Under the pieces are notes generated by a model, which saw only the letters and a list, made by a program, of their open reading frames with translations, did no database searches and was not told the origin of the DNA. Positions 4,240 through 11,332 of a stretch of DNA of 42,230 nt are shown here, one piece after another (the first letter of the stretch is position 1; each line of letters begins with the position of its first letter). The translations under genes and the position numbers were made by a program. The stretch is from Armatimonadota bacterium. Its GTDB lineage: Bacteria > Armatimonadota > Fimbriimonadia > Fimbriimonadales > ATM1. The stretch is taken from positions 1 through 42,230 of the forward strand of contig JAJPJR010000026.1 of the NCBI GenBank assembly GCA_021324165.1, written 5' to 3'.

Positions 4240-4698
4240 CTACTTCTTCGACCATTCCCAAAGGCCGTACAAGAACTTGTCATCGGGCTCGTGGCCGTTG
4301 ATGCGGAGTGCGATTTCTATCTGCGCTCGGTGGTGGGCTTCGTGCGCCACGCAGTACGCAAAAAACCGCAACGTTTTCAGGTCCGCATCAGGCTTTTTGG
4401 CGGCCGCATATTTTCTAAACAACTCCATCATCATCTCGCTGCTCAGCTGCAGCGCTTTTTTGATCTCCGACTTCTTTGCTGTTTTCCAATCCAGTTTCGG
4501 AATCAGCGCCGATTCCTTTTTCATTTTCTCTTCCATCCACATCTTTCGCACGCCGATCATGTGAACGAAGTTTGAGCGGATCGTTTTACCCTTTCCGGGC
4601 TTCAGTTCAAAGTGCAGTTTTTCGTCGCAGGCATCCAGCATCTCCAAATTGATGGCGTTGTTTATTCGCCACACTTCGCACAGCGCTTCGATATCCAT
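4240..4698 (-). CDS. DinB-fold family protein, coupled to the selenoprotein
   Basis: The 152-residue protein belongs to the DinB/YfiT superfamily, with candidate metal ligands H46 (NFVHMIGVRKMW) and the VAHEAHHRAQI cluster (H119, H122, H123). Its ATG shares one base with the TGA of the upstream redoxin (TGATG), which implies translational coupling; a GTG at 4701 in the same frame is an alternative start. Some DinB proteins use bacillithiol, mycothiol or glutathione as cofactor, so pairing with a thiol/selenol redoxin is suggestive, but its substrate is unknown. Confidence 0.85.
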   Translation of the reverse strand: MDIEALCEVWRINNAINLEMLDACDEKLHFELKPGKGKTIRSNFVHMIGVRKMWMEEKMKKESALIPKLDWKTAKKSEIKKALQLSSEMMMELFRKYAAAKKPDADLKTLRFFAYCVAHEAHHRAQIEIALRINGHEPDDKFLYGLWEWSKK

Positions 4699-5162
4699 CA
4701 CTCCTTCACCAGTTTCGAAACCACCGCCGACAGGTCTTCAATTCTCTCCAGACGAATGTTTCGCCGTTTGCCGGTCTTGTCAATGAACACAAATGAGAGT
4801 CGTTCACCGTTTTTTGGGAACAGTTTGTTCACATACGCTTCGTTCTCATCCAAGCCGATCGGCCACGTGATGTTCTGAGATTTCTTTGCTTCGGCCCACG
4901 CCGTCTTTTCATCTGCGGTGAAAGCGCCGGTGCTGATTCCTATGGCCGCCGCCTTGCCCGGAAACTTGTCGAGAGTCTTTCGCAGCAGACCTGCCGCGTA
5001 ATCATAACCTCAGCAAAACCCCGGATTCACGTGCAGAATCACCACCTTCCCGCGATAATCGCTCAGCTTTGGGGCTTTTTCGGCATTCAGCCATTTCGGA
5101 ATTTCGAACGCGGGAATCGCGTTTCCCTGCACGGCCAGCAGAAGGAGAGTCGTGGTCATCAT
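4698..5162 (-). CDS. Thioredoxin-fold selenoprotein with Cys-Sec pair (in-frame TGA)
   Basis: Reading from ATG 5162 gives about 50 residues of a TlpA/AhpC-like redoxin: a PAFEIPKWLN stretch, then KLSDYRGKVVILHV, then NPGFC. The next codon is TGA (5010-5012). The same frame continues for 103 codons to a TGA at 4698-4700, completing the fold: GYDYAAGLLRKTL, AAAIGIST, ITWPIGLDENEAYVNKLFP, then LSFVFIDKTGKRRNIRLERI. The TGA lies where redoxins carry their active-site cysteines, giving C50-U51. A SECIS-like hairpin begins 11 nt after it. A simple nonsense mutation is less likely because the downstream frame is intact and the hairpin matches. There is no other Cys in the protein. The N-terminus has a short hydrophobic run (TTTLLLLAV), perhaps a weak signal peptide. 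It requires selA, selB, selC and selD elsewhere, none of which are in this window. An automatic annotation would split this gene or call it a pseudogene. Confidence 0.82.
4981..5012 (-). promoter_or_regulatory. Bacterial SECIS element with its UGA codon
   Basis: After the UGA at 5012-5010, CGCGGCA (4998-4992) pairs with UGCUGCG (4987-4981), with one G-U, closing a GGUC loop (4991-4988). There are 18 nt between the UGA and the GGUC loop. From memory, E. coli fdhF also has exactly 18 nt and the same ten-base apical sequence GCAGGTCTGC, where the loop GU contacts SelB. The bulged U of the E. coli element is not present; a G-U pair occupies that region. Confidence 0.82.
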
Positions 5163-5168
5163 ATCGCC

Positions 5169-5174
5169 ATTATA
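5169..5174 (-). promoter_or_regulatory. Perfect -10 box for the selenoprotein gene, probable leaderless start
   Basis: TATAAT on the minus strand ends 6 nt before the ATG at 5162, with no Shine-Dalgarno between. The -35 region is poor (TTTGGC 16 nt upstream). The spacing predicts a transcript starting at or within a base or two of the AUG. This also supports 5162 rather than the longer open frame to 5345. Confidence 0.55.
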
Positions 5175-5203
5175 CGTTGCCGATGCAGCCGCCAAACCGC
5201 AAA

Positions 5204-5224: not shown

Positions 5225-5237
5225 CCTCCAAAAACAT

Positions 5238-5263
5238 CCCTCTCCCCCAAAAAGGGGAGAGGG
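5238..5263 (-). terminator. Terminator hairpin after the subtilase
   Basis: CCCTCTCCCC and GGGGAGAGGG are perfect 10-bp arms around a 6-nt loop, 12 bp beyond the subtilase stop. On the minus strand a GTTTTT run follows within two or three bases, as in an intrinsic terminator. It separates the subtilase from the downstream selenoprotein-DinB pair. Confidence 0.7.
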
Positions 5264-5274
5264 AGAACAATCCG

Positions 5275-7011
5275 TTAGTTCCTAACCGCCCAGCGGAACT
5301 GGTCAACCCGGCCCTGAAGCGGAGACGCCGCCGGCGAAGGATCAATGAACACGATCCGCGCGCGCATCGCTCCGTCCGACTGCCTAACGAACCGCGAAGG
5401 ATTCGAAGTCACCGTCACGCTCGACCACTGGTCGTTCGAATTCGCCTGACGCGAGTTCATCACTTCCCACTGACTGGTGTTCCAGTTCCACATATCCACG
5501 CGGCGGAACACGATCTCAGAAGTCTGCTCTTCGGCGATCATATCAATCCGCGAAGGACTCAGGTTCGGCGAGGTTCCGTCAATGATCAATCCCATGAACG
5601 GGTCGCCGGTCGCCTGCGAAGGCACCAGCGTGAAACTCACACGGTCATCGTCGCTGTATTTCAGGCTGTTCAGATTGCCGCCCGACTGCGTGCAATGATA
5701 GAACGACATGCTGTTGGGATAAACCAGCGGCGCGGCCACTTTCTGCATCGCGGTGAACGCATTGATGCGGCCCCAGCCGAACTTTTCATCCCAGCCGACA
5801 GGGCCTTTGTCATCGCACGTCGTGATGATCACATTCCACAGTTCGTCGCGGGTCAGGCTCCGGTCGAGCGACCACAGAAGAACGGCCAAGCCGCTCACGT
5901 GCGGACACGCCATTGAAGTTCCAGACAGCCAGGCGTAACTGTTCGTCGGATACGTCGAATACACCGTGTCGCCCGGCGCCGAAACGTCCACCTGCGGACC
6001 GTAGCTTGAAAAACTTGCGAAGGCGTCGGTCATCGTCGTGGCCGAAACCGCGTAGCAGTTCGCATACGCGGCTGGGTACAAAACGTTGCGCGAACCGGTG
6101 TTGCCGGCCGCCGCGATCAACAACACTCCGTTTCCGAAGGCGTAATCCACTGCGTTTTGAGCCTCGCTCGAACCGCCCGAACCGCCCAGGCTCATGGATT
6201 CAACCCACGCGCCGTGGTCAGCCGCCCAAATGATCGCCTGGGCGACGCTCGTCCATGTTCCGCCGCCTCCGTCATCGAGGCATTTCACCGGCATGATTCG
6301 GGTTCCCCAGCTCACGCCTGCGACGCCCTGGTTGTTGTTTCCGTTGGCAGCAGCGATTCCTGAGCAGTGGGTTCCGTGGCCGAAGCCGTCGTTCGTGTTG
6401 GTGTTGTTGCTCAGCGTGTTCCAGCCGGAAAGGAGTCTTCCGCTGAACTCGGGGTGGCTCGCCTGAATGCCGGTGTCCAAGACTGCCAGAACGGCCTGCG
6501 TGCCTCCCGTGTGAATGTCCCACGCCTCGAAGGCGTCAATGTCCGCATCGGGTGTGCCGCCGGTCTGCCCAGTGTTGTTGAGCGGCCAGCAGTTGCTGAT
6601 CAGGGAGTCGTTGGGTGTAAGAAGCGAATAAACCTTTCCATCTACGTGCGCCTCCTCCACGCCTTTTGCCGCCGCAAACTCGGCGGCCATCGCCTTCACG
6701 TCCGTGCCTTCGGGAACGTGGTAAACGAACACCCGGTCAAGCCCGAGTTTCTCGGCAAGCTCCCCGTTGCGAAAACCCGTGGGAGAAAGCGAAAGCGCCT
6801 GGCTTGAATGCCACTTTGCGCTGACAGTGTCAACCCCTTTGAGTCCGGTGACTGGCCCGAAAACCGGTGTGTTGTAGGGCACTGTGTGCCCCGAGAACCG
6901 AACGACAATCCGATCGGTGACGAAATCCTGCTTAGCCGCAACCTGGGAAAACCCCGAGGCGGCGGAAAGCGCGAGACACGAAAACATTGCTGGTAAGAGA
7001 TTTGCCTGCAT
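5275..7011 (-). CDS. Secreted S8 (subtilisin) family serine peptidase
   Basis: The 578-residue protein has a signal peptide (about 1-25), a propeptide-like region (30-125, TDRIVVRFSGHTVPY to VEEAHVDGKV) and a complete subtilase domain. The catalytic residues are D179 in AVLDTGI, H212 in GHGTHCSG and S366 in GTSMACPH; N304 in AAGN forms the oxyanion hole. A beta-rich tail of about 150 residues follows (from about 425). GGAGGG lies 6 nt before the ATG. Its paralogue at 9581-11332 has the same layout, including the shared NNTGQTGGTPDADIDAFEAWD motif. Likely a periplasmic or extracellular protease for nutrient acquisition. Confidence 0.95.
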   Translation of the reverse strand: MQANLLPAMFSCLALSAASGFSQVAAKQDFVTDRIVVRFSGHTVPYNTPVFGPVTGLKGVDTVSAKWHSSQALSLSPTGFRNGELAEKLGLDRVFVYHVPEGTDVKAMAAEFAAAKGVEEAHVDGKVYSLLTPNDSLISNCWPLNNTGQTGGTPDADIDAFEAWDIHTGGTQAVLAVLDTGIQASHPEFSGRLLSGWNTLSNNTNTNDGFGHGTHCSGIAAANGNNNQGVAGVSWGTRIMPVKCLDDGGGGTWTSVAQAIIWAADHGAWVESMSLGGSGGSSEAQNAVDYAFGNGVLLIAAAGNTGSRNVLYPAAYANCYAVSATTMTDAFASFSSYGPQVDVSAPGDTVYSTYPTNSYAWLSGTSMACPHVSGLAVLLWSLDRSLTRDELWNVIITTCDDKGPVGWDEKFGWGRINAFTAMQKVAAPLVYPNSMSFYHCTQSGGNLNSLKYSDDDRVSFTLVPSQATGDPFMGLIIDGTSPNLSPSRIDMIAEEQTSEIVFRRVDMWNWNTSQWEVMNSRQANSNDQWSSVTVTSNPSRFVRQSDGAMRARIVFIDPSPAASPLQGRVDQFRWAVRN

Positions 7012-9580: not shown

Positions 9581-11332
9581 TTACTGGCGCACCGACCAAC
9601 GCGCCTGGTCAATGTTCACGTTCAGAATCCCTGTTTGAGGATTCATATCATAAAACGAGATGCGCGCTTTCATCGCGCCTCCGTTTCCGATGAACCGGTT
9701 AGGGTTCGACGTTACGTTGATGATCGCAAGGTTATCGCTGCTGCTGATCGGCCTTGCGTCAACCAGTTCCCACTGGCCATTGGTCATATTCATCAGTTCG
9801 GTTCTTTGCATGCCTCCAGCCTTGTTCGCGCTGGTTACAAGAAGGAACTGAACTTTCGATGCGCTTCCATACGGGCTCGTTCCGTCCACCGTAACGCCCA
9901 CCGCGGGTGAAACGTTGGCGGGAGGCATCGTGCCGTTCGCCTTGTAATACGAACCGTCGGCATGATAAACATCCGCGGCGGTTCCGCTCACGTAATTTCC
10001 GCGGAACAGCGTGATGTTCGTCGGGAACGCCAGATCGAGCGTCGCTTTTTGCAGCGCATACCACGCGTTGATTCGTCCCCAGCCATAGAACTCGTCGAAT
10101 CCGGTTGAGCCTTTGTCCTCGGCCGTTGAACGGATGATTTCGAACACCTGATCGTTGGTCAATCCGCGGTCATACGACCAGATCAGCGAAGCCAGCCCCG
10201 AGGTATGCGGTGTGGCCATCGAGGTTCCCGAATAGTAGGCATAACCGTTATTCGGAACGCACGAATACACGTTCTCGCCAGGCGCCGAAACGTCAATTTC
10301 GGGGCCGTAGTTCGAAAAACTCGCCCTCGCGTCGGTGTGAGTGGTCGCACCCACCGCGTAGCAGTTCGCGAACTTTGCCGGAAATGCGATGCGCCTGCCC
10401 TGGTTATTCCCAGTGGCGGCGATCAGCAGCAATCCTTGGTCGTGCGCATAGTTGACGCTGGCTTCGAACGACGCAGCGCCGGTGTAGTACTGAAGGCTCA
10501 TCGTGCAGATGTTTGCGCCGTGATCTGCTGCCCAAACCATCGCCGCGCCGCACTGATCCTCGGTTCCGTTGCCGCCGTCGCTCAGACATTTCACCGGCAT
10601 GATCCGAACCCGCCAAGAGACGCCTGCCAACCCGATGCCGTTATTGCCGTTCGCTCCTGCCGTACCCGCAACGTGTGTGCCGTGCGCGTATCGGTCCATC
10701 GTGTCGCCGTTGTTGAGATAGGTGTTCCAGCCGGTAACCATCTTGCCTGCCATCTCGGGGTGGTTCGGGTCCACTCCGGTGTCAATCACCGCCAAGATGA
10801 TGTTGCCGTACCCGGTGAAGATGTCCCACGCTTCAAACGCATCAATGTCCGCATCCGGGGTTCCGCCGGTTTGTCCGGTGTTGTTCAACCCCCAGCAGTT
10901 GCTGATCGAAGGGTCGTTGGGAGTCAGTGCTACTCCTCCGATGCCGTCGAGTTCGGCGAGTTCAACCTTGTCGGCTTTCGAAAACTCGCGGATCATCGCT
11001 TTCACGTCGGTGCCTTTCGGCACATGAACCACGTAAGTTCGGCTCAGGCCCAGTTTGTCGGCCAACGCCTGATTCGCATAACCTTGCGGGCTGAATTCGA
11101 GCATGTCGTTGACGTGCCACTTCTCGGCCAGCGCGTTCAGCTGCGGGTTGCCGGTTTGAACTCCCAGCACGGGCACGGTTATCGGCACGACTCCTGGCGT
11201 TACTCGGACCAGTATCCGATCCGAGGCGTATCCGCCGAAAACGTCGGGTTTATCGAGCGCTCCTCGGTTCTGTGCAAATGCTGCGGCCGCTAATGCGAGG
11301 GTCAGGCATCCCACTCCTCTCCATCTGTTCAT
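9581..11332 (-). CDS. Secreted S8 (subtilisin) family serine peptidase, second paralogue
   Basis: The 583-residue protein has a signal peptide (1-20), a propeptide-like region (to about 135) and a subtilase domain with D184 (AVIDTGVD), H217 (AHGTHVAG), N309 (ATGNN) and S371 (GTSMATPH). All catalytic positions are intact. The C-terminal beta-rich part (about 430-583) resembles that of the paralogue at 5275-7011. AAGGAGGAG lies 6 nt before the ATG. The two share long motifs, including the TPDADIDAFEAWD run, so they arose by duplication, with a 2-kb plus-strand region between them. Likely extracellular degradation of protein. Confidence 0.95.
   Translation of the reverse strand: MNRWRGVGCLTLALAAAAFAQNRGALDKPDVFGGYASDRILVRVTPGVVPITVPVLGVQTGNPQLNALAEKWHVNDMLEFSPQGYANQALADKLGLSRTYVVHVPKGTDVKAMIREFSKADKVELAELDGIGGVALTPNDPSISNCWGLNNTGQTGGTPDADIDAFEAWDIFTGYGNIILAVIDTGVDPNHPEMAGKMVTGWNTYLNNGDTMDRYAHGTHVAGTAGANGNNGIGLAGVSWRVRIMPVKCLSDGGNGTEDQCGAAMVWAADHGANICTMSLQYYTGAASFEASVNYAHDQGLLLIAATGNNQGRRIAFPAKFANCYAVGATTHTDARASFSNYGPEIDVSAPGENVYSCVPNNGYAYYSGTSMATPHTSGLASLIWSYDRGLTNDQVFEIIRSTAEDKGSTGFDEFYGWGRINAWYALQKATLDLAFPTNITLFRGNYVSGTAADVYHADGSYYKANGTMPPANVSPAVGVTVDGTSPYGSASKVQFLLVTSANKAGGMQRTELMNMTNGQWELVDARPISSSDNLAIINVTSNPNRFIGNGGAMKARISFYDMNPQTGILNVNIDQARWSVRQ

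What the first reader, a model, noticed from the sequence alone, without database searches (positions are those of the whole stretch)
4698..5162. Overlooked selenoprotein with a SECIS element closely matching the E. coli fdhF pattern
Seen: an in-frame TGA directly after an active-site-like Cys, a complete redoxin C-terminus in the same frame after it, and a hairpin with a GGUC loop 18 nt after the TGA. Known: bacterial SECIS elements sit just 3' of the UGA and present a G-U in the apical loop to SelB; from memory, fdhF has the same ten apical bases and the same 18-nt distance. Inference: the UGA encodes selenocysteine in a Cys-Sec pair. Gene callers would truncate this ORF at the TGA and drop the second half.
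Basis: partly seen in the sequence, partly recalled or inferred. Interest (0 to 1): 0.92.

Follow-up and report, generated by a model that had tools for sequence, protein, structure and literature searches.

The report
Selenocysteine redoxin with Cys-Sec pair
A small bacterial redox gene that ordinary gene callers cut in half at a TGA 'stop' almost certainly reads that TGA as selenocysteine, giving a neighbouring cysteine-selenocysteine active-site pair that is not in the current published list of prokaryotic selenoprotein families.

Summary
On the minus strand (5162→4698) lies one open frame with an in-frame TGA at codon 51 (5012–5010), right after Cys50: NPGFC-U-GYDYAAGLL. It is an AhpC/TSA-type thioredoxin-fold protein with coding signal on both sides of the TGA. 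The same genome (Armatimonadota MAG, 97% complete) encodes SelA, SelB with its winged helix, SelD and tRNA-Sec(UCA). The three closest homologues (29–35% identity, same order) carry Cys exactly at this site (FCCG/LCCG). The hairpin meets the published bacterial SECIS model and shares its ten apical bases and 18-nt spacing with E. coli fdhF; this combination occurs once in the genome. Hairpin energy alone is weak evidence (z = −1; 8–21% of TGAs in the window pass the generic rules), so the case rests on Cys/Sec pairing, machinery and the sequence-specific apex. Novel part: an adjacent Cys-Sec at the CxxC site of a PF00578 redoxin is absent from the 119-family table of a 2026 review and from NCBIfam. 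Only one Sec-containing member was found; there are no expression, selenium or activity data. New variant of a known kind.

The parts
4698..5162 (-). Selenoprotein ORF: AhpC/TSA (thioredoxin-fold) redoxin, 154 aa, short hydrophobic N-terminus, active-site motif NPGF-C50-U51-G
5010..5012 (-). In-frame TGA, codon 51, read as selenocysteine; aligned Cys in all three close homologues
5013..5015 (-). TGC, Cys50, aligned with the first Cys of CPGC in PDB 3eyt/3lor
4981..4998 (-). SECIS hairpin: 7-bp stem, GGUC apical loop (4991-4988), loop starts 18 nt after UGA
4698..4700 (-). True stop codon (TGA), overlapping the ATG of the downstream gene (TGATG)
4240..4698 (-). Downstream DinB-family gene whose ATG (4698-4696) overlaps the redoxin stop; coupling implies translation runs past codon 51
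   Evidence: Pfam match computed on 4240-4701

Best explanation
The gene encodes a selenocysteine-containing, probably exported, thioredoxin-fold oxidoreductase. SelB loaded with Sec-tRNA(UCA) binds the GGUC-capped hairpin just 3' of UGA codon 51 and inserts Sec there. The mature protein then carries adjacent Cys50 and Sec51 at the N-terminus of the active-site helix, where ordinary relatives have CxxC. Cys50 sits at the nucleophilic Cys position, the usual resolving Cys is replaced by Tyr53, and Cys50 and Sec51 cycle between selenol/thiol and a selenenylsulfide to reduce a disulfide or peroxide substrate. Shown: the frame, homologue Cys pairing, Sec machinery, SECIS match, predicted fold. Inferred: actual Sec insertion, the vicinal bond, export, and the substrate.
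For: Full Sec machinery in the same genome: selB 390 bits over its cut-off with the SelB-wing_3 winged helix, selA 471.5 bits, selD 369 bits, tRNA-Sec 80.2 bits with TCA anticodon. Cys at residue 51 in all three close homologues, invariant C50-C51-G52. Those three genomes also carry selA, so Cys/Sec exchange happens among Sec users. bSECIS rules of the 2026 review all met; apex and spacing identical to E. coli fdhF and unique in the genome. Coding signal continues after the TGA. Stop/start overlap with the next gene. Another redoxin in the same genome, WUGPC TlpA-type, also uses TGA, with TGA-bearing homologues at 70-82% identity in five other genomes of the order. Confident thioredoxin fold with residues 50-51 just before helix 53-66 (pLDDT 88); best matches DipZ, SPOA0173, ResA.
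Against: Only one Sec-containing member is known; no second genome shows TGA at this site. The hairpin energy is not exceptional (z -0.99) and generic SECIS rules are loose. The bulged U of the E. coli upper stem is absent. The source is a metagenome assembly, so a base error cannot be excluded from the sequence alone. The mechanism (vicinal selenenylsulfide) is inferred.
Confidence: 0.95

Rival explanations
1. Pseudogene or assembly error: a Cys codon (TGC/TGT) became TGA by mutation or miscalling, and the downstream half is a relic.
For: MAG assembly in 83 contigs; the aligned codon is TGT/TGC in homologues, one base from TGA; only one TGA-bearing member.
Against: Coding signal after the TGA is intact with no frameshift or other stop; it would require the single nonsense change to fall exactly on a conserved redox Cys, 15 nt before a ten-base match to the fdhF SECIS apex that is unique in the genome, in an organism with complete Sec machinery.
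Confidence: 0.04
2. TGA is reassigned (for example to Trp) in this organism.
For: The frame is open under such a code.
Against: 8 of 15 inspected ORFs in the window end in TGA; homologues have Cys, never Trp, at the site; a dedicated tRNA-Sec with UCA anticodon is present.
Confidence: 0.003
3. A real 50-residue truncated protein followed by an unrelated frame.
For: A gene caller would give an ORF ending at 5010.
Against: The Pfam AhpC-TSA match spans residues 13-131 across the TGA, and alignment with homologues is continuous.
Confidence: 0.007

Closest known systems
E. coli fdhF SECIS (formate dehydrogenase H)
   Same: Ten apical bases GCAGGUCUGC and 18-nt UGA-to-loop distance identical.
   Different: Stem below the apex differs in sequence; uninterrupted 7-bp stem without the bulged U; the gene is an unrelated redoxin. 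Identity of the apex is likely shared SelB recognition, not descent.
Prx-like thiol:disulfide oxidoreductase selenoproteins (PF00578, UxxC/UxxU) and UxxC/UGC TlpA-type selenoproteins (cd02966), Table 1 of PMC13188914
   Same: Same fold superfamily, Sec at the active site, Cys-containing homologues.
   Different: There Sec is in UxxC, UxxU or UGC; here Sec is the residue directly after the Cys (CU), and the usual second Cys of CxxC is Tyr.
Peroxiredoxin-U (TxxU), NCBIfam NF040737 PrxU
   Same: AhpC/TSA domain selenoprotein.
   Different: Only 14.2 bits against a cut-off of 270; no PxxxTxxU motif.
SPOA0173 (PDB 3eyt), C. glutamicum 3lor, M. tuberculosis DipZ C-terminal domain (2hyx)
   Same: Closest solved structures by sequence profile and by fold.
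   Different: 3eyt and 3lor have a CPGC-type CxxC and no Sec in the printed alignment; here C-U-G-Y.
Known CU-motif selenoproteins (SaoL, SaoC, SaoB, HgcA, MbdU, KCU-star, Csac_0668) and mammalian thioredoxin reductase GCUG (the latter from general knowledge)
   Same: Adjacent Cys-Sec pair.
   Different: Listed CU families carry other domain assignments; none is listed as AhpC/TSA.

Membership tests
Bacterial selenoprotein (SelB/SECIS-decoded Sec) | In-frame UGA with coding continuing after it | tested here: met
Bacterial selenoprotein (SelB/SECIS-decoded Sec) | Cys homologues aligned at the UGA | tested here: met
   Cys in 3 of 3 close homologues
Bacterial selenoprotein (SelB/SECIS-decoded Sec) | bSECIS: 3-9 nt loop, 4-16 bp stem, G in first two loop positions, 16-37 nt spacing, MFE <= -7.5 | tested here: met
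   4-nt GGUC loop, 7 bp, 18 nt, -10.8 kcal/mol; criteria are loose
Bacterial selenoprotein (SelB/SECIS-decoded Sec) | selA, selB, selC, selD in the genome | tested here: met
Bacterial selenoprotein (SelB/SECIS-decoded Sec) | UGA-containing orthologue in another genome (customary support, not strictly defining) | tested here: not met
   None among 291 genomes of the phylum
Bacterial selenoprotein (SelB/SECIS-decoded Sec) | Selenium in the purified protein | not testable with these tools
   needs 75Se or mass spectrometry
AhpC/TSA (PF00578) thioredoxin-fold redoxin | Profile match above the gathering score | tested here: met
   32.7 bits against 26
AhpC/TSA (PF00578) thioredoxin-fold redoxin | Thioredoxin fold with active site before the first long helix | tested here: met
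TlpA/ResA-type CxxC oxidoreductase | CxxC (or UxxC) motif | tested here: not met
   C-U-G-Y; homologues C-C-G-Y/F
Peroxiredoxin (PxxxTxxC/U) | PxxxTxxC/U motif | tested here: not met
   NPGFCUG

The most novel reading that the evidence does not exclude
A new selenoprotein subfamily: a thioredoxin-fold AhpC/TSA protein in which the catalytic pair is an adjacent Cys-Sec (CUG, Cys form CCG) replacing CxxC, making a strained eight-membered selenenylsulfide ring inside a redoxin active site, a chemistry otherwise associated with the GCUG tail of mammalian thioredoxin reductase.
Probability: 0.6. Interest if true: 0.6.

Novelty: new variant of a known kind. Interest (0 to 1): 0.5.

Why it matters
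It adds a selenoprotein subfamily with a Sec position not listed for its fold, in a phylum (Armatimonadota) for whose selenoproteins no paper was found in the library searched. Standard annotation loses two thirds of the protein. The Cys form in sister genomes and the Sec form here give a natural pair for asking why a redoxin would adopt a vicinal Cys-Sec motif. The fdhF-identical SECIS apex in a distant phylum also suggests that the SelB-apex recognition code is old or re-evolved.

Tried and rejected
TGA as Trp or other reassignment: rejected (TGA is a common stop, homologues have Cys). Hairpin stability as proof: rejected, z-score only -0.99 and generic SECIS rules pass many TGAs. Rfam scan of the window: no SECIS family hit. 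Formate dehydrogenase as a Sec protein in this genome: the two PF00384 hits have no internal stop. Wider search for members: genome contigs gave only the known Cys homologues plus distant redoxins, though that scan used a single peptide pattern; viral contigs and plasmids gave none. Looking for the same SECIS apex in the WUGPC redoxins of the order: not found; their hairpins differ and have no obvious shared apex.

Full report
OBSERVATION. The feature is on the minus strand. Reading 5162 to 4698 gives MMTTTLLLLAVQGNAIPAFEIPKWLNAEKAPKLSDYRGKVVILHVNPGFC-U-GYDYAAGLLRKTL..., 154 residues with one in-frame TGA at codon 51 (5012-5010) and a natural stop at 4700-4698. Codon-usage scoring favours the same frame on both sides of the TGA (+15.1 bits over 50 codons before, +40.6 over 103 after; the other frames are negative) and GC by codon position is similar on both sides. 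The AhpC/TSA match runs from residue 13 to 131, straight across the TGA.

HAIRPIN. After the TGA come 18 nt and then the loop GGUC, closed by an uninterrupted 7-bp stem (4998-4981; -10.8 kcal/mol). All constraints of the published bacterial SECIS model (quoted in PMC13188914) are met. These rules are loose: 276 of 1,321 TGAs in the window meet them in my implementation, 107 with the GG/GU loop, and a quarter to two fifths of synonymous recodings of the same peptide still do; the energy z-score is only -0.99. What is not loose is the match to E. coli fdhF. The fdhF letters were confirmed against E. coli genomes; the window shares its ten apical bases GCAGGUCUGC at the identical distance. TGA-N15-GCAGGTCTGC occurs once in the 2.33-Mb genome, at this site. 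The three Cys homologues do not fold into this hairpin. The homologues have Lys or Asn, and other residues, where this protein has the Gly-Leu encoded by GGUCUG, as expected if the RNA constrains the peptide here (inference).

MACHINERY. The window lies in a 2.33-Mb, 97%-complete genome whose nearest named relatives are Armatimonadetes/Fimbriimonas MAGs (placement in Fimbriimonadales is inferred). It encodes SelB (390 bits, over cut-off; EF-Tu domains, SelB beta-barrel and the C-terminal winged helix), SelA (471.5 bits), SelD (369 bits) and a tRNA-Sec with anticodon TCA (80.2 bits). SelA is present in 61 of 113 genomes of the order (60 over the cut-off).

HOMOLOGUES. In the order, three genomes encode clear homologues without a stop, and their residue at the TGA is Cys: TFCCGYDH, SFCCGYEF, VLCCGFDV. 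Invariant columns include Pro47, Cys50, position 51 and Gly52. All three genomes carry selA. Profile search of 291 genomes of the phylum gave these four at 230-241 bits and then nothing above 55 bits, so this is a small, distinct family. The genome-wide collection returned two of the same Cys homologues plus distant redoxins. No second TGA-bearing member was found.

FOLD AND ACTIVE SITE. AlphaFold2 on the four-row alignment gives a confident thioredoxin fold (pLDDT 88, pTM 0.83; modelled with Cys for Sec); residues 50-51 lie just before helix 53-66. Best solved relatives are DipZ C-terminal domain, SPOA0173 (3eyt), 3lor and ResA. The profile alignment places Cys50 on the first Cys of CPGC in 3eyt and 3lor, residue 51 on Pro, Gly52 on Gly and residue 53 (Tyr) on the second Cys. 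The motif is therefore CxxC-like with the partner moved next to the nucleophile: C-U-G-Y. The mechanism proposed (Cys50/Sec51 selenenylsulfide) is inference from this alignment. The hydrophobic N-termini of all four proteins suggest export (sequence inspection).

CONTEXT. The redoxin stop overlaps the start of a DinB-family gene (TGATG), an arrangement typical of translational coupling, which makes most sense if ribosomes pass codon 51. No DinB gene was recognised beside the homologue in L091 (by inspection). TGA is an ordinary stop in this genome: 8 of 15 inspected ORFs. A second redoxin of the genome, TlpA-type with WUGPC, also needs TGA read-through, and the motif was read in ten genomes of the order.

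COMPARISON WITH THE KNOWN. The 2026 inventory of 119 prokaryotic selenoprotein families (PMC13188914 Table 1) lists PF00578 members with TxxU, UxxC or UxxU, cd02966 members with UxxC or UGC, a cd02970 member with UxxS, and a Redoxin PF08534 member with UxxC. CU motifs are listed only under other domain assignments (SaoL, SaoC, SaoB, HgcA, MbdU, KCU-star, Csac_0668). NCBIfam, which holds many selenoprotein models, has no model that claims this protein (best 14.2 bits against a cut-off of 270). No open paper found links Armatimonadota or Fimbriimonas with selenoproteins in a relevant way (only three incidental papers, judged from titles and abstracts). By that review's own rule (different Sec position means a different subfamily) this is a new subfamily, if real.

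VERDICT. The kind (a bacterial selenoredoxin) is known; the variant (vicinal Cys-Sec at a PF00578 active site) appears unlisted. Weak points: one Sec member, a metagenome assembly, no biochemistry.

Noticed in passing
L051 (G000:C39:4195-4551), also L098-L102, L113, L040, L045, L070: TlpA-type redoxins with WUGPC (TGA at the first Cys of CGPC) in this genome and nine others of the order; their downstream hairpins do not share the fdhF-like GGUC apex, so their SECIS type is unclear.
   Followed up: partly
window 5163-5175 (minus strand): TATAAT ends about 6 nt upstream of the redoxin ATG, with no clear Shine-Dalgarno sequence, suggesting a leaderless or nearly leaderless transcript.
   Followed up: no
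window 5230-5265: An inverted repeat (CCCTCTCCCC-AAAAA-GGGGAGAGGG) between the upstream gene and the redoxin, probably the terminator of the upstream subtilase gene.
   Followed up: no
window 5275-7011 and 9581-11332 (minus strand): Two subtilase-family (Peptidase_S8) proteins encoded near each other.
   Followed up: no
G033 (L040): A WUGPC redoxin gene in a genome where selA was not found; the genome is only 74% complete.
   Followed up: no
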